Shown in pieces: positions 1,830-7,393 of a DNA stretch of 7,507 nt. The position numbers and the translations under genes were made by a program. The stretch lies in the NCBI GenBank assembly GCA_024641365.1, contig JAHEDF010000177.1:1-7507 (forward strand), in the 5' to 3' direction. The notes under the pieces were generated by a model. The model did no database searches and was not told the origin of the DNA. It worked only from the letters and a program-made list of their open reading frames with translations. The stretch comes from Planctomycetota bacterium. GTDB lineage: Bacteria; Planctomycetota; UBA11346. Positions within the stretch are counted from its first letter, which is position 1. Each line of letters begins with the position of its first letter.

Positions 1830-2930
1830 TTAGCGACCAAAAATTAATTCCATGGCATAGGTACAAACCCACGCAACAATGGCGCTTGCGGGTAAGGTCA
1901 GAACCCAAGCGACTAAAATATTAACTGCTGTTCCCCAGCGTACTGCGGCTAATCCTTTTGAAGCACCCGCACCCATAACACTTGAGGTAATACAGTGTGT
2001 CGTCGATACGGGAATGCCAAAAGAACTTGCGGATAATATAACGGCGGTCCCACTGGTTTGAGCGGCAAAGCCTTGTAGTGGATTAATTTTAATAATTTTC
2101 GAGCCCATAGTTTTAATAATTTTCTTTCCACCAGCCATAGTTCCTAAGCACATAGCTAAAGCGCATGAAATAATTACCCATGTTGGAATATTTGTTGCGT
2201 GTGGTAACGCCCAATGCAGCCAGGTTGGCAAAATATCAAAAAGCGGCTGTGCCCATCCAGGTACAGTCTTAGCGTCAAGTGGAGCAGCCCATTCAGGCAG
2301 GACAATACCGCCTGCTACGGCAGATAATAATGCTAAAGTAATAATACCCATAGCTTTTTGTGCGTCATTTGAACCGTGTGCAAATGACAGGGTGCACGCA
2401 GAAATTAATTGTAGGTACCGAGCACCTGTATTAACAGTCGTTGGGCGCATGTGACGGACAATCCACAATGAAATGATCATTAAAATAAATGCCGTAATGA
2501 GACCAATTACTGGCGAAGCAACTAAGGGAATTATTACTTTTTTGATTAAAGCAGCCCAATGAAATCCATCGATACCGGCATGGGCAACAACCGCGCCAGC
2601 TAATCCGCCAACCAGCGCATGCGAAGAGCTAGATGGTAATCCCCACCACCAAGTCAGCAAATTCCATGTACTTGCTCCGATTAATGCTCCTAAGACTACT
2701 TGTTGAGTAATTATGTGAGGGTCCGCTAAACCTTTAGCAATAAATGCGGCAACCGCGGTTCCAGCTAAGGCGCCAAAAAAATTAAAAATACCAGATACAA
2801 TGACAGCAGTTCGAACTGACATAACCCCAGTCGACACACTGGTCGCTATCGCATTTGCTGCATCATGAAAGCCATTGATGAAATCAAAAACGAGCGCAGC
2901 TATGACAACAAGTATTAACAGCTCAAGCAT
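1830..2930 (-). CDS. pit: Pit-family (PHO4/PiT) low-affinity inorganic phosphate transporter
   Basis: Integral inner-membrane carrier of 366 residues, expected to import phosphate (as metal-phosphate with H+ symport in characterised bacterial Pit proteins). Both PiT signature repeats are present: GFHDAANAIAT (20-30) and AHGSNDAQKAMG (184-195). Each is followed by a conserved re-entrant-type segment, GLPSSSSHALVG (97-108) and GIPVSTTHC (305-313). The rest is mostly long hydrophobic stretches, with a hydrophilic insert around 212-245. It is shorter than E. coli PitA (499 residues) but matches the compact bacterial Pit form. Its ATG overlaps the end of the upstream DUF47 gene by 8 bases (ATGCTTGA), which suggests translational coupling in one operon; no strong Shine-Dalgarno is visible. 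It converges on glgB with an 11-base gap. The substrate could be sulfate in some PHO4 members, but the DUF47 partner favours phosphate. Confidence 0.94.
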   Translation of the reverse strand: MLELLILVVIAALVFDFINGFHDAANAIATSVSTGVMSVRTAVIVSGIFNFFGALAGTAVAAFIAKGLADPHIITQQVVLGALIGASTWNLLTWWWGLPSSSSHALVGGLAGAVVAHAGIDGFHWAALIKKVIIPLVASPVIGLITAFILMIISLWIVRHMRPTTVNTGARYLQLISACTLSFAHGSNDAQKAMGIITLALLSAVAGGIVLPEWAAPLDAKTVPGWAQPLFDILPTWLHWALPHATNIPTWVIISCALAMCLGTMAGGKKIIKTMGSKIIKINPLQGFAAQTSGTAVILSASSFGIPVSTTHCITSSVMGAGASKGLAAVRWGTAVNILVAWVLTLPASAIVAWVCTYAMELIFGR

Positions 2931-3561
2931 GCTTCACGGCAACAGACAGAAGGGTGTCAGCAACTTGTTCACAGCGATTGACGGCTTTTTCTAAATCGTC
3001 GAGCACTTCTTTTTCACGTAAAATATCTTTAGCGTCAATTTCTGGATCGTGAAATAATTTGCTAATCGCGTCTCGAAAGACGACATCACTTTCTTTTTCT
3101 AAGAGGCCAATTTTTTTAGCGCCTTCTGTCACTTTGTTGTATTCGTGTTTGCGAAGAAAAGGCATTGTTGCTTCTAACTGCGCGGTGCAGGCAACAAGAT
3201 TTTCTATGAGTACATTCATTGGTTTAGTTGGCTTTTGGACGCCAAATAAAACACATGCACGAGCTGCAGCATTACAACAATCACAAATATCGTCGATCCG
3301 TTTTGATAATTTTTGTAAATCATCTCGATCAATGGGGGTGACAAATGTTTGTGCTAAGGAATCGAGCATTTTGCGAACAACCACATCGCCAGCGTGTTCG
3401 AACTCCTGGACAGAGGCACGCACTTCCGCGACAACAACACCCTCAGTTAGGCCTTTTAGCGCTAAGGCAGTTTTGTGTGCTATTGCGCTCTGCTCTTCAA
3501 GATAATCGTAGAAATGATCTTCTTTAGGGAGCAACCAACGGAGAAAGTTTTGAAATGGCAT
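2923..3561 (-). CDS. DUF47 / PhoU-like Pit accessory protein
   Basis: Cytoplasmic all-helical protein of 212 residues, normally encoded beside Pit transporters and thought to modulate phosphate uptake. PhoU-like metal-binding ExxxD motifs occur twice: E55-D59 (EFEHAGD) paired with IDDICD (89-94), and E155-D159 (EKESD) paired with a helix at 184-202 containing NRCEQVAD. The start chosen is the ATG at 3561 (MPFQNFLRWLLPKED), because family members begin with this motif and reach about 210-220 residues. The frame remains open upstream to 3747, crossing the start of the divergent MCE gene; an alternative ATG at 3633 would add 24 residues that repeat the PKE motif (see findings). Neither ATG has a convincing Shine-Dalgarno. 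The gene overlaps pit by 8 bases, making a two-gene operon. Family assignment is firm; the start is moderately certain. Confidence 0.9.
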   Translation of the reverse strand: MPFQNFLRWLLPKEDHFYDYLEEQSAIAHKTALALKGLTEGVVVAEVRASVQEFEHAGDVVVRKMLDSLAQTFVTPIDRDDLQKLSKRIDDICDCCNAAARACVLFGVQKPTKPMNVLIENLVACTAQLEATMPFLRKHEYNKVTEGAKKIGLLEKESDVVFRDAISKLFHDPEIDAKDILREKEVLDDLEKAVNRCEQVADTLLSVAVKHA

Positions 3562-3616
3562 GGCCGGGATACCATGTCTTGTTTCCAAAAGATCAAGGCA
3601 CAGCTCCTCTTTAGGC

Positions 3617-3643
3617 AGTATACGCCGGACCATATGACGTAAA
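3617..3643 (-). promoter_or_regulatory. Candidate sigma70-like promoter for the DUF47-pit operon
   Basis: Read on the minus strand, TTTACG (3638-3643) resembles a -35 box and TATACT (3617-3622) is 5/6 to the -10 consensus. The spacer is 15 bases, shorter than the preferred 17. Transcription would begin near 3609, leaving a leader of about 50 bases before the ATG at 3561 and excluding the alternative ATG at 3633. This is inference from a motif match only. Confidence 0.35.
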
Positions 3644-3645
3644 CT

Positions 3646-3659
3646 CTTGCTGTAGCAAG
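3646..3659. promoter_or_regulatory. Palindrome in the divergent control region, possible operator
   Basis: CTTGCTGTAGCAAG is a perfect 6-bp inverted repeat with a 2-base centre. It lies just upstream of the candidate -35 of the DUF47-pit operon and 23 bases before the ATG of the MCE gene. Its symmetry and position suit a dimeric regulator serving both genes, or a small hairpin in the MCE leader. Nothing identifies a specific regulator; it does not look like a classic Pho box (no CTGTCAT direct repeats). Confidence 0.3.
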
Positions 3660-3682
3660 TTTCCAACGGTAGGGTCCCCATC

Positions 3683-4846
3683 ATGCGCTCGACGACGACG
3701 CTCGAAATTAAAGTCGGTTTATTGATCCTGGTCGGCATTGTTGCCACCGTGGTTTTGGTGTTGATGACAGACCGTATTCGCTTTGATCGATTTTACACCG
3801 TCAAGGCGTATGTATCTGATGCTGCTGGGCTACGTCCAAATTCCCCAGTTACCGTTGACGGTATTCGCGTTGGCGATGTTGTTAGTTTAAATGCGGTTGG
3901 TGACCCGCGTGGTAATATTCAGGTTGTCATACGCATTAATGAGCGTTCGGCAATTCCGTCTGATTCTAAATTAACCATTGCATCAAGCGGTATTTTTGGC
4001 GATAGCTTTTTAGCATTTTCTGGGTCAGCGGATAGTAATGCGACACCATTTCCCAAAGATGGCACAGCAGAAATTCAAGCGTCTCGAGGATTTTTAGATA
4101 AAGCAAGTCAACAAGCAGAAAATATATTAGCCGGTGTCAGTGATTTATTAGATGAAGATATGCGCAATAACGTCAAGCGTATGATGAAGGGCGCAGCGGA
4201 TATTGCAGAAAATGGAGCGCGATTAACCAAAAATTTAGATGATCAAACGGCCTTAATTAGGGAGTCGCTTACAAGTTTAAAAGCGTTAAGTGAAGATTTG
4301 CGCAAAACGGTAGGCGCACTCGAATCTCGGGTAAATACCTCACTCACCAAAGTAGAAGATTCATTAACCAAAGTTGATTCATTGGTGGTTTCGACCAATG
4401 AACAAATTCTCAAAGTGACCTCGCAAGCTGAGTCCACTTTGAAAACCTTTGATGAAACAGGCAAAAGTGCGCAAGCCGTTATGACTCAAGTCGGACCGGA
4501 TGTTGGACAAACACTCGCTGCCGCCAGACAATTAGCTGAACGCGTTGACCGTCTGGCTGCGGCACTAGAAAATGGTGATGGCGTCATTGGTCAATTGTTA
4601 GTTAATAAAGCCCTTGCAGAGGATTTAAATAATACGGCGATTGATTTGAGTCGTACGGCAGCGCTTATTGCCGAACACCCCGAAGTGTTAGTGTTTGGTA
4701 TGTCTAATGAAGAATCTGCTGCACAAGCTGCGCGTCGTGAACGCGCAAAACAGCGCCGTTCATTTCATGAAAATTATCGTCCCGGTATTCCTATTTCTGT
4801 AGAGCAGCTACAACCAGCTAGCGATAAGCAACCAATGGAAAAGTAA
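3683..4846 (+). CDS. MCE-domain (MlaD-like) lipid transport protein
   Basis: Probable periplasmic, inner-membrane-anchored substrate-binding subunit of an MCE-type ABC lipid transporter (387 residues). Residues about 11-28 form a single N-terminal membrane helix (VGLLILVGIVATVVLVLM), oriented like MlaD. The MCE domain follows at about 38-115, with the typical GLRPNSPVTVDGIRVGDV segment (49-66) and a GIFGDSFL strand (103-110). Residues 140-300 are long helical heptad-like sequence. After them comes the usual MCE C-terminal element, GDGVIGQLLVNKALAEDL (298-315) and HPEVLVFG (332-339), and then a basic, disordered-looking tail. The start ATG has AGGG at 3671-3674 with an 8-base spacer. The gene stands alone: no permease (MlaE) or ATPase (MlaF) gene is adjacent, and the neighbours are divergent pit genes and convergent sucD. 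The exact lipid substrate is unknown. It is longer than E. coli MlaD (183 residues), so it is not a strict mlaD orthologue. Confidence 0.88.
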   Translation: MRSTTTLEIKVGLLILVGIVATVVLVLMTDRIRFDRFYTVKAYVSDAAGLRPNSPVTVDGIRVGDVVSLNAVGDPRGNIQVVIRINERSAIPSDSKLTIASSGIFGDSFLAFSGSADSNATPFPKDGTAEIQASRGFLDKASQQAENILAGVSDLLDEDMRNNVKRMMKGAADIAENGARLTKNLDDQTALIRESLTSLKALSEDLRKTVGALESRVNTSLTKVEDSLTKVDSLVVSTNEQILKVTSQAESTLKTFDETGKSAQAVMTQVGPDVGQTLAAARQLAERVDRLAAALENGDGVIGQLLVNKALAEDLNNTAIDLSRTAALIAEHPEVLVFGMSNEESAAQAARRERAKQRRSFHENYRPGIPISVEQLQPASDKQPMEK

Positions 4847-4883: not shown

Positions 4884-4912
4884 AAAAGGCCCTGATAAAA
4901 TCAGGGCCTTTT
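4884..4912. terminator. Bidirectional rho-independent terminator between the MCE gene and sucD
   Basis: A perfect 12-bp stem, AAAAGGCCCTGA (4884-4895) with TCAGGGCCTTTT (4901-4912), closes a 5-base loop (TAAAA). The GC-rich core is flanked by A and T runs on both sides, so a U-tract forms in either direction. It lies 37 bases after the MCE stop and 24 bases beyond the sucD stop, which fits termination of both converging transcripts. Confidence 0.9.
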
Positions 4913-4936: not shown

Positions 4937-5827
4937 CTAGCGTTTGCCAGCAGCAATTTTTAATGTTTCGCCCAAAGTCGCAGGACTTTCGGCAATAAAA
5001 ACACCAGCTTTACGCATGGCTTTAAATTTTGCCTCTGCTGTACCGGTGTTACCACTGACGATAGCACCTGCATGTCCCATACGTTTGCCTTTAGGTGCAC
5101 GAGAACCAGCGATAAAGCCGACAACTGGTTTGGTGACATTTTTTGCAATAAATTCGCATGCGCGTTCTTCACTGTCGCCGCCAATTTCACCAATCATAAT
5201 TATTTGTTTAGTTTCTGGGTCATTTTGGAATAACGTTAACGCATCAATAAAGTCGGTGCCTTTAATCGGATCGCCACCGATACCGATACAGGTTGACTGG
5301 CCTAAGCCAGCATTGGTGGATTGGAAAACCGCTTCATACGTCAACGTACCGGAACGACTGACGATGCCAGTTGAGCCACGTTTGTGAATGTACCCTGGCA
5401 TGATGCCAATTTTACATTCGCCAGGGGTAATAACACCTGGGCAGTTTGGTCCAATAAGTCGTGATGATGATTTTTCCAATTTTTGTTTGACGATGTACAT
5501 ATCACGAACGGGAATGCCTTCGGTGATGGCGACAATTAATGGAATGCCAGCATCAATTGCTTCGCAAATTGCATCGGCGGCACCAGGAGGTGGTACAAAG
5601 ATCATGGTTGCGTTTGCGCCGCCTTCTTTGACCGCTTCAGCGACGGTATTCCAAACGGGAAATTTTTTACCCTTTTCAGAAACCCACGTCTGTCCACCTT
5701 TGCCGGGTGTAACACCGCCCGCGAAATTGGTTCCGTAACTAACGGCGCCATTGGAATGGAAAGTACCTACTTTGCCAGTTATGCCTTGGCAAATGAGGCG
5801 GGTCTTTTTATTGACGAGTACGGCCAT
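4937..5827 (-). CDS. sucD: Succinyl-CoA synthetase (ADP/GDP-forming), alpha subunit
   Basis: Alpha subunit (296 residues; E. coli 289) of the TCA-cycle enzyme that converts succinyl-CoA to succinate with substrate-level phosphorylation. The N-terminal CoA-binding Rossmann domain shows [12 protein letters not shown] (13-24). [10 protein letters not shown] (101-110), [11 protein letters not shown] (126-136), SRSGTLTYE (157-165) and GIGGDP (182-187) are conserved. The phosphorylated active-site histidine is His252 in GHAGAIVSG. The start is the ATG at 5827, giving the family N-terminus MAVLVNKKT, with GGAG at 5836-5839 (minus strand) 8 bases upstream. An in-frame ATG 24 bases earlier lies beyond this Shine-Dalgarno and is unlikely to be used. 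The gene follows sucC by 54 bases in one operon and ends shortly before the bidirectional terminator. It has no tail comparable to that of SucC. Confidence 0.97.
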
Positions 5828-5839: not shown

Positions 5840-5881
5840 ATCTGCTAGCACATTATATAGTGCGAGCGAGAGTCATTTGGT

Positions 5882-7393
5882 TCAGCGCTTGGTGGATTTC
5901 TTTACTTGTTTAGCAGCCGCTTTTTTAGCGGCTTTTTTTAAAGCTTTCTTGAAAGCTTTTTTAACGAGTTTTTTTGTTTTTATTTTAACCGACGGTTTTT
6001 TTCCCGCTTTTTTAACAGCAGGTTTAGCCTTTTTACTAGCGGCAGGACGCGCTGATTTTGCGGGTTTCGCAGTAGGCTTCTTTGCTATTTTCTTCGCCGG
6101 TTTTGATTTTGGAATATATGCAATTGCTGGTGGTGTTGGTAATGCTGGACGAGGGGGGAGCCCTTGTTGTGCACGATATTCGGCAGCAGCTTTAGCTGCT
6201 TTAATGCAACCATCTTTTAAATCATCTGCAGCAATCACAGTGAGACCGGATTCAGCAATTAATTTTTTACCTTCTTTAACATTAGTGCCTTCTAAACGCA
6301 CCACTAACGGGCGATCTAATCCAACTTCTTTTACTGCGGTGAGAACGCCAGTTGCGATGGTGTCACATTTCATGATGCCACCAAAAATATTTACTAATAT
6401 AGCTTCAACGGCTGGATCTTTTAAAATAATTTTAAATGCAGTTGTTACTTTTTCGGCTGTCGCACCGCCGCCCACATCAAGAAAGTTCGCAGGAAAAGCA
6501 CCTTGTTTAGCGCCGTATTGAGCAATGGCATCCATGGTGGCCATGGCTAATCCAGCACCATTGACCATGCAGCCAATGTTGCCGTCTAATTTCACAAATG
6601 CCATGTCATGACTTTTTGCTTCTAATTCAGCGGGGTCTTCTTCATTCGGATCTAACATCGCTTGAATTTCAGGATGACGGTAGAGGGCATTATCATCAAA
6701 TGACATTTTACTGTCGAGTGCAATTACGTCATCATTGGCGGAAACCACTAATGGATTAACTTCCAACATATCAGCATCGGTTTCGAGGAAACACGTCGCT
6801 AATGCCTGTGCTGTTTTCACAAATGCTTTAATCTGATTTGGGGTCAATCCCATTTCAAAGCCAAAGCGACGCGCTTGCCAGGTACCTAATCCTGCATGCG
6901 GATCAAAATGAGTTTTGAGAATTTTTTCAGGATGCGAGTGGGCCACTTCTTCAATATCCATGCCGCCTTCACTACTCACAATTAATACAGGTGCCGCTGC
7001 GGCGCGATCCATTAAAATTGAAAAATATAATTCTTTGGCAATTTGACAGCCATCTTCAACGTAAAGGGTTTGAACTTGTTTGCAGCCATCGCCTGTTTGA
7101 ATAGTTTTTAAATAATTACCCAATAATTTACCGGCCATTTCCTTGGCTTGCTCAGGTGATTTGACGACCTTTACGCCGCCGTCCATGACATGTTGGGTCA
7201 TGGCTTCATCAGCGTAGACGGTGCCTTTACCCCGACCACCGGCATGAATTTGTGACTTCACAACAACAACTGGCGAACCTAATTCGCGAGCTGCTTTTTC
7301 AACTTGATCAACTGTGGTGCATGCATGACCGCGTAGCACCGGAACGCCATGCGCTTTAAAGAGTTGTTTGCCTTGGTATTCGTGAATTTTCAT
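5882..7393 (-). CDS. sucC: Succinyl-CoA synthetase beta subunit with lysine-rich H1-like C-terminal extension
   Basis: Nucleotide-binding ATP-grasp beta subunit that pairs with SucD in the TCA cycle. It is 503 residues against 388 in E. coli. The start is the ATG at 7393, giving the conserved [12 protein letters not shown], with GAGGA at 7398-7402 (minus strand) just upstream. Core motifs are all present: [10 protein letters not shown] (48-57) in the ATP-grasp, [12 protein letters not shown] (140-151), EVNPLV (211-216, metal binding), [15 protein letters not shown] (226-240), [18 protein letters not shown] (271-288), NFLDVGGGA (303-311) and [11 protein letters not shown] (334-344). The enzyme proper ends near residue 405. 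The frame then runs on, without a stop or frameshift, through a Pro-rich linker into a tail of Lys, Ala and Pro to residue 503. The core is very likely an active enzyme; the tail's role is unknown. sucD follows after 54 bases. sucA/sucB are not in the 114 bases visible upstream. Confidence 0.96.
5885..6157 (-). other. Region of sucC encoding a histone H1-like Lys/Ala/Pro tail
   Basis: This covers residues 413-503 of SucC. By my count the 91 residues contain 31 Lys, 3 Arg, about 20 Ala and 13 Pro, and no Asp or Glu. Residues 413-428 are a Pro-rich linker ([10 protein letters not shown]). Residues 430-475 carry AKKP/KPAK-type repeats like those of histone H1 tails and bacterial H1-like or AlgP-type proteins. 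From about residue 472 the pattern becomes [18 protein letters not shown], a predicted cationic amphipathic helix with hydrophobic residues every 3-4 positions. No Met codon lies in the tail, so it is unlikely to be an independently ATG-initiated protein. Likely properties are nucleic-acid, polyphosphate or membrane binding; this is inference from composition. Confidence 0.85.

What the first reader, a model, noticed from the sequence alone, without database searches (positions are those of the whole stretch)
5885..6157. Succinyl-CoA synthetase beta subunit carrying a histone H1-like polycationic tail
Seen directly: an intact SucC frame continues about 100 residues beyond the usual end into a Pro linker and a segment with 34 basic and zero acidic residues of 91, ending in an amphipathic cationic helix. 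Established: bacterial SucC is normally about 385-400 residues with no such tail, and Lys/Ala/Pro tails of this kind are typical of H1-like DNA-binding proteins. Inference: the tail may tether a TCA enzyme to nucleoid DNA, RNA, polyphosphate or the inner membrane, or scaffold a TCA-enzyme assembly. It may also have arisen by stop loss or by fusion with an H1-like gene.
Basis: partly seen in the sequence, partly recalled or inferred. Interest (0 to 1): 0.75.

Follow-up and report, generated by a model that had tools for sequence, protein, structure and literature searches.

The report
TCA enzyme with DNA-binding-type tail
A bacterial lineage, probably within the Planctomycetota, has given one subunit of an ordinary TCA-cycle enzyme a long, floppy, positively charged tail like those of DNA-packaging proteins, which may park the enzyme on DNA or another negatively charged polymer.

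Summary
Window 5885-7393 (minus strand) encodes an intact SucC (succinyl-CoA synthetase beta subunit) of 503 aa. Its catalytic core ends near residue 402; a 26-residue linker and a 75-residue polybasic tail (33 K/R, no D/E) follow. It is not a sequencing error or a one-genome stop loss: 44 further database proteins (two of them fragments) carry the tail, in a clade that also holds tail-less SucCs and whose few named members are Planctomycetes MAGs. Holding 37 tailed rows together gives a better core tree than the free search, so one origin is the simplest reading. The linker is nearly fixed in length and conserved; the tail drifts in sequence and length but stays basic, mostly acid-free and modelled as disordered. 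New here: four orthologues have GRP-repeat, AT-hook-like arrays instead of K/A/P-rich tails. The same H1-like/AT-hook exchange within one orthologue set is described for the DNA-binding tail of myxobacterial CarD. Best explanation: a flexible polyanion-binding arm, most likely for nucleoid DNA, on a catalytically normal SucCD, working like the tails of AlgP, PhaF and CarD. DNA binding is inferred, not shown.

The parts
6188..7393 (-). sucC catalytic core (residues 1-402): ATP-grasp_2 and Ligase_CoA domains
   Evidence: Pfam PF08442 at 2-217 and PF00549 at 276-393; NF001913 535.5 bits; PDB match to E. coli SucC 1jkj over residues 1-400
6110..6187 (-). conserved linker of 26 residues (403-428)
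   Evidence: Same length in 42 of 43 tailed rows, 25 in one; in those 42 rows A403, R407, G411 and P428 are in 42, I424 and A425 in 41, L418 in 40. AlphaFold2 mean pLDDT 82 for 411-420 and 61 for 421-430
5885..6109 (-). polybasic tail of 75 residues (429-503): 33 K/R, 0 D/E
   Evidence: Composition; pLDDT below 50 for 439-503; no Pfam or NCBIfam family in 5885-6157 at E up to 1
5882..5884 (-). stop codon of sucC
4937..5827 (-). sucD (alpha subunit, 296 aa), 54 bases downstream of the sucC stop; no tail
   Evidence: NF004230 442.4 bits over residues 1-290 of 296; the E. coli H246 position aligns with H252

Best explanation
SucC here is a normal catalytic beta subunit that pairs with the adjacent SucD. 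In this lineage its C terminus has gained a two-part arm. A linker of 26 residues leaves the last core helix, perhaps packs partly on the enzyme, and sets where the arm exits. A free, disordered, strongly basic segment of 32-121 residues then binds a polyanion, most likely nucleoid DNA, through many weak contacts, and so keeps SucCD on or near the nucleoid. Shown by computation: the frame, the inheritance, the nearly fixed linker, the drift of sequence with charge kept, low-confidence (disorder-like) models, and the exchange between K/A/P-rich (H1-like) and GRP-repeat (AT-hook-like) tails. Inferred: that it binds nucleic acid, that DNA is the ligand, and that localisation is the purpose.
For: (1) Tails in 42 database proteins plus the window, and in two N-truncated fragments: 45 of 121 (the fragments P0001 and P0004 were left out of the tree). 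(2) The tree with 37 tailed rows held as one clade is 11.7 lnL better than the free tree; p-AU 0.625. (3) Linker of 26 residues in 42 of 43, with near-invariant positions. (4) After the linker K+R is 30-55%; D+E is 0 in 30 of 43 and at most 12%. K and R replace each other (31:2 in the window, 9:12 in P0026); post-linker identity is lower than linker identity in each of six core-identity bands. (5) pLDDT under 50 from residue 439 in the window and in most of the stretch from 424 on in P0026. (6) P0023, P0024, P0057 and P0060 have 5-6 GRP motifs each, 0 of 5000 shuffles as many; P0023 reaches 16.5 and P0024 14.8 bits for Pfam AT_hook, below its 17.4 cut-off; the switch needs 3 changes on both trees, 2 forced by starred branches of the tailed-only tree. 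(7) CarD orthologues show the same alternation in a DNA-binding tail (passages of PMC4374960 and PMC9304148). (8) AlgP and PhaF have KPAA/AAKP tails linked to DNA binding or nucleoid association (passages). (9) Catalytic positions are kept.
Against: No binding data exist. Of 43 tails 39 have no AT-hook-like array; the single GRP in P0003 is not more than chance (305 of 5000 shuffles). Pfam AT_hook stays under its cut-off in two of the four and is not listed for P0057 and P0060. A polybasic chain would also bind RNA, polyphosphate or acidic lipid. E. coli SucC, without a tail, was crosslinked to nucleic acid at scattered sites, read by the authors as a hint of RNA-related roles (passage of PMC12359043). 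About half of the clade lives without the tail (50 of 93 rows), so it is dispensable. The free trees need 6 changes of tail state, so losses or transfers are not excluded. Six of the 43 rows (P0026-P0029, P0036, P0058) are near-copies, so the sample is smaller than it looks. The lineage's other proteins could not be examined.
Confidence: 0.5

Rival explanations
1. The arm binds RNA or ribosomes, or polyphosphate granules, rather than DNA; the enzyme, which interconverts ADP and ATP, is placed beside the translation machinery or a phosphate store.
For: Polybasic composition does not tell polyanions apart. AlgP, with a KPAA tail, localises to polyphosphate granules (passages of PMC9239181). E. 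coli SucC and SucD were found crosslinked to nucleic acid, one SucD site being of unambiguous RNA origin (passage of PMC12359043). The window also holds a Pit-type phosphate transporter and a PhoU-like gene.
Against: AT-hook-like arrays in four orthologues point to DNA. Whether the Pit/PhoU neighbours are kept beside other tailed sucC genes could not be checked (no genome of the clade was reached).
Confidence: 0.25
2. The arm is a protein-protein device: linker and tail dock SucCD to another TCA enzyme, such as the 2-oxoglutarate dehydrogenase complex, forming a metabolon.
For: The linker is nearly fixed in length and conserved, as a docking motif would be; A/P/K-rich linkers occur in E2 subunits (recalled).
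Against: Only the linker is conserved in sequence; the long basic segment keeps charge but not sequence, and the AT-hook-like switch has no role in this reading.
Confidence: 0.12
3. The tail has no specific function: a one-time C-terminal extension by stop loss or fusion, since tolerated.
For: Tail-less members exist in the same clade (50 of 93 rows); tails vary from 58 to 147 residues, linker included.
Against: Random mutation would put stops in 60% of copies at 10% change and add acidic residues (mean 2.0 at 10%, 4.6 at 30%). Observed tails stay long and basic, 30 of 43 acid-free, among rows whose cores are down to 70% identical to each other, and no row of 116 has a tail of 21-49 residues. 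The linker is conserved. Rows were selected for having a tail, which weakens this argument somewhat.
Confidence: 0.1
4. Assembly artefact or missed stop codon in the window.
For: None found.
Against: Tailed relatives occur on contigs of up to 316,863 bases (P0006); one (P0026) is on 51 contigs.
Confidence: 0.01

Closest known systems
Bacterial SucC, ADP-forming succinate--CoA ligase subunit beta (NF001913, TIGR01016; E. coli 1jkj/2scu)
   Same: Whole catalytic core and active-site positions; adjacent sucD.
   Different: E. coli SucC has 388 residues; here a 26-residue linker and 75 basic residues follow the core. 0 of 82 SucC loci fetched from other bacteria have more than 25 residues after the core.
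Myxobacterial CarD (HMGA-like or H1-like C-terminal domain)
   Same: A folded bacterial domain followed by a disordered basic tail; orthologues alternate between AT-hook repeats and H1-like K/A/P-rich tails (passages of PMC4374960 and PMC9304148), as these SucC tails do.
   Different: CarD is a transcription regulator with shown DNA binding; the SucC core is a metabolic enzyme and binding is not shown. No relation of the folded parts is claimed.
AlgP and PhaF (H1-like KPAA/AAKP tails, Pseudomonas)
   Same: K/A/P-rich disordered C-terminal tail on an unrelated N-terminal part. PhaF attaches PHA granules to nucleoid DNA; AlgP binds DNA, localises to polyphosphate granules and spaces them (passages of PMC9239181 and PMC5658603).
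   Different: Tandem KPAA/AAKP repeats and granule-associated N-terminal parts; here the carrier is an enzyme and the tail is irregular.
AT-hook of HMGA type (Pfam AT_hook PF02178)
   Same: RGRP(P/A) repeats in P0023, P0024 and P0060, mostly PGRP variants in P0057.
   Different: Absent from the window's own tail; scores below the Pfam cut-off in P0023 and P0024 and is not listed for P0057 and P0060.

Membership tests
SucC (NF001913 / TIGR01016) | Score over the curated family cut-off | tested here: met
   535.5 against 370 bits and 477.8 against 375.55 bits
SucC (NF001913 / TIGR01016) | Active-site residues (E. coli E197, N199, D213) and a partner SucD with phospho-His 246 | tested here: met
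   E211, N213 and D227 are invariant in the alignment of 70 rows and align with those of E. coli (residue roles recalled); SucD H252 aligns with H246
SucC (NF001913 / TIGR01016) | Usual size of about 385-400 residues | tested here: not met
   503 residues. Size is usual rather than defining, so it remains a SucC, of a tailed variant
Histone H1-like C-terminal tail (AlgP/PhaF/H1 type) | K/A/P-rich, nearly acid-free, disordered C-terminal tail | tested here: met
   K+R 44%, A+P 31%, D+E 0 after the linker; pLDDT under 50 from 439
Histone H1-like C-terminal tail (AlgP/PhaF/H1 type) | DNA binding or nucleoid association | not testable with these tools
   needs binding or localisation assays
Histone H1-like C-terminal tail (AlgP/PhaF/H1 type) | Regular KPAA-type tandem repeats | tested here: not met
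   The window's tail reads as irregular (by eye; no repeat finder was run) and its segment matches no Pfam or NCBIfam family
AT-hook (HMGA-like) protein | RGRP core repeats, Pfam PF02178 over cut-off | tested here: not met
   Window: none. P0023 16.5 and P0024 14.8 bits against 17.4, although P0023, P0024, P0057 and P0060 have 5-6 GRP motifs each, which 0 of 5000 shuffles reach

The most novel reading that the evidence does not exclude
The tail makes a central-metabolism enzyme part of the nucleoid and turns its own product into a signal: succinyl-CoA made by SucCD succinylates the nearby tail lysines (+1 to -1 each), so that TCA flux switches the enzyme off DNA and, when bound, feeds local acylation of nucleoid proteins.
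Probability: 0.07. Interest if true: 0.9.

Novelty: new variant of a known kind. Interest (0 to 1): 0.58.

Why it matters
It would be a clear, conserved case of a core TCA-cycle enzyme wired to the nucleoid (or another polyanion) by a dedicated disordered arm, in what is probably a lineage of a phylum known for unusually condensed nucleoids (recalled). Tail-less members of the same clade, up to 86% identical to the window in the core, give a natural control. The exchange of H1-like for AT-hook-like tails in one orthologous enzyme family would be a second case beside CarD of two chemistries solving one DNA-tethering task.

Tried and rejected
Sequencing error or private stop loss: rejected by 44 tailed relatives. 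Conserved terminal amphipathic helix or membrane anchor: rejected, 30 of 43 tails have no proline-free 18-mer. Tails in other bacteria: 0 of 82 SucC loci (80 genome, 2 viral-collection) have more than 25 residues after the core. Two phylum surveys with the window protein: 145 genomes of the phylum of a Chthoniobacterales-titled genome (85 with a match at E up to 0.001, of which 63 strong places at E below 1e-40) and 120 of the phylum of a Rhodospira-titled genome (113 with a match at E up to 1e-60). No strong match without an in-frame stop passes query residue 407; the longer ones cross stops, so they are compositional run-ons. These surveys see only tails that align with the window's; a tail of other make-up would be missed. 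Searching again with a profile of 37 tailed proteins added no tailed member to the best 120 listed of 8000 (its new entries P0121-P0130 are 390-400 aa, judged by length only).

Led nowhere: the window's own genome is not held, and no Planctomycetota genome handle could be reached, so neighbourhoods, DNA-level selection and other tailed proteins of the lineage were not examined. The plasmid search shows no long match: 15 of 104 records listed, at most 82% of the query covered. Literature: searches (0 papers; 0; 0; 2, unrelated by title; 15 of 32 listed; 8 of 59 listed) show no title on such a tail; these listings are capped and subscription journals are mostly not held, so this is weak evidence of absence.

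The free trees interleave tailed and tail-less rows (6 changes). I read one origin from the AU comparison, run on 93 rows after 23 long, near-copy or partial rows had been taken out, six of them tailed. Rows dropped before the first tree: P0001, P0004, P0086, P0088, P0099 (fragments). P0051 was left out of the per-position linker counts (linker one residue shorter). The hook label is not more clustered on the tailed-only tree than chance would give (50 of 500 shuffles as low), as expected if it switches repeatedly, but also with only four rows.

Full report
What is there. The minus-strand gene at 5882-7393 is sucC, followed 54 bases later by sucD (4937-5827). The SucC frame is 503 codons from ATG 7393. 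The NCBIfam SucC match ends at residue 404 and the alignment with E. coli SucC at residue 400. Codon choice in the tail resembles the core. SucD has no tail (family match over 1-290 of 296).

The enzyme looks intact. Positions aligned with E. coli SucC E197, N199 and D213 (E211, N213, D227) are invariant in an alignment of 70 rows, and SucD keeps the phospho-histidine position (H252 against E. coli H246; roles recalled). AlphaFold2 gives a mostly confident core whose best solved matches are SucC chains.

It is a heritable trait. Two searches gave 120 relatives. Of these, 42 have tails of 58-147 residues after residue 402 of the core, two more are N-truncated fragments with tails, and with the window that is 45 tailed of 121. 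In the core-only quick tree of 116 rows, 43 tailed and 50 tail-less rows make up one clade of 93 (SH-aLRT 99). Tailed proteins come from several sources (ncbi, jgi, ena), on contigs of up to 316,863 bases, and P0026 is on 51 contigs. Six of the 43 (P0026-P0029, P0036, P0058) are near-copies. Organism names are few: in the clade, all that were shown are Planctomycetes or Planctomycetota MAGs, namely P0010 and P0042 with tail, P0044, P0061 and P0096 without, and P0086, P0098 and P0099, which are partial. I place the window in Planctomycetota as an inference from these names. The free quick trees need 6 changes of tail state, but the tree that holds 37 tailed rows together against 56 others is 11.7 lnL better (p-AU 0.625), so one origin is the simplest reading. 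A profile search added no tailed member to its listed best 120.

Anatomy. The arm has two parts. First, a linker that ends exactly 26 residues after the core in 42 of 43 rows and 25 in the other, with A403, R407, G411 and P428 in 42 of 42, I424 and A425 in 41, L418 in 40 and Y426 in 37. Residues 411-420 are modelled at mean pLDDT 82 and 421-430 at 61 in the window, 86 and 51 in P0026. Second, a basic segment of 32-121 residues with K+R 30-55% and D+E 0 in 30 of 43, at most 12%, with very low pLDDT in both models made. Among 268 pairs whose cores are 80-85% identical, the linker is 64% and the basic part 45% identical (basic low-complexity sequence inflates the latter). Lys and Arg replace each other between rows. 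Under random mutation stops and acidic residues would soon appear. So charge and openness are kept while sequence is not. Two cautions: rows count as tailed because they have tails, and tails cut to 20 residues or less would count as tail-less; no row of 116 has a tail of 21-49 residues.

Switch to AT-hook-like tails. P0023, P0024, P0057 and P0060 share the linker but then carry 5-6 GRP motifs (RGRP followed by P or A in three; mostly PGRP variants in P0057); none of 5000 shuffles of each tail has as many. One GRP in P0003 is not beyond chance (305 of 5000). The switch needs 3 changes on the tailed-only tree, 2 forced by starred branches. Pfam's AT_hook model rings under its cut-off in P0023 and P0024 (16.5 and 14.8 against 17.4 bits) and is not listed for P0057 and P0060 at E up to 1, so this is a resemblance, not a formal hit.

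What it works like. In CarD of myxobacteria the disordered C-terminal DNA-binding domain has AT-hooks in most orthologues and an H1-like tail without them in two (passages of PMC4374960 and PMC9304148; the 2009 paper titled as reporting functional equivalence of the two was seen only as a reference entry and is not held). PhaF attaches PHA granules to nucleoid DNA, and AlgP, also with a KPAA tail, binds DNA and spaces polyphosphate granules (passages of PMC5658603 and PMC9239181). The SucC family shows the same two solutions on one carrier. I therefore commit to a polyanion-binding arm (about 0.75 in total), with nucleoid DNA as the most likely ligand (0.5). RNA or polyphosphate is the main rival: E. 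coli SucC and SucD were crosslinked to nucleic acid, which the authors read as a hint of RNA-related roles for SucC (passage of PMC12359043), and AlgP localises to polyphosphate granules.

Not seen elsewhere, within limits. None of 82 fetched SucC loci has more than 25 residues after the core. In two phylum surveys (145 and 120 genomes; 85 and 113 with a match, 63 strong places in the first) no strong stop-free match passes query residue 407; tails that do not align with the window's would be missed. Other phyla were not surveyed, and Planctomycetota genomes could not be reached, so rarity is shown only within these samples.

Limits. No experimental data, no DNA from tailed relatives, no view of other proteins of the lineage. 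If many of its proteins bear such tails, the SucC-specific story weakens. Literature searches listed no title on a tailed SucC, within an open-access library and capped listings.

Verdict. A real, conserved and, as far as these searches show, undescribed variant of SucC: known parts (SucC; H1-like and AT-hook-like tails) in a new combination.

Noticed in passing
window 2923-3747 (-) and 3683-4846 (+): The PhoU-like (PF01865) ORF as listed overlaps the divergent MlaD-type gene, but the Pfam match starts only at residue 64 of the 266 given, so the true start is probably an internal ATG near 3561 and the genes need not overlap.
   Followed up: no
window 3683-4846 (+): MlaD-domain protein of 387 aa with a long C-terminal part beyond the MlaD domain (Pfam 38-113); that part gives weak side hits to ZorA and LegC2/C7 models, perhaps a coiled coil (inference).
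   Followed up: no
window 4884-4912: Perfect inverted repeat (13-base arms, loop of 3) ending in A and T runs between the converging MlaD-type gene and sucD, looking like a shared bidirectional terminator (read by eye; the scan did not list it).
   Followed up: partly
window 5877-6521 (+): A 214-aa open frame antisense to the sucC tail, rich in Phe/Ala; probably a mechanical mirror of the Lys/Ala codons, not a gene (not searched).
   Followed up: no
P0004, P0006, P0010, P0011, P0032, P0051 (tails): A recurring motif VRKSGGPEVRKS or close variants is embedded in several tails, perhaps a repeat that seeds tail growth.
   Followed up: no
P0032 and P0051 (tails): Both end in SLMSFNP(K/T)RR, a motif unlike the ends of the other tails in the alignment.
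   Followed up: no
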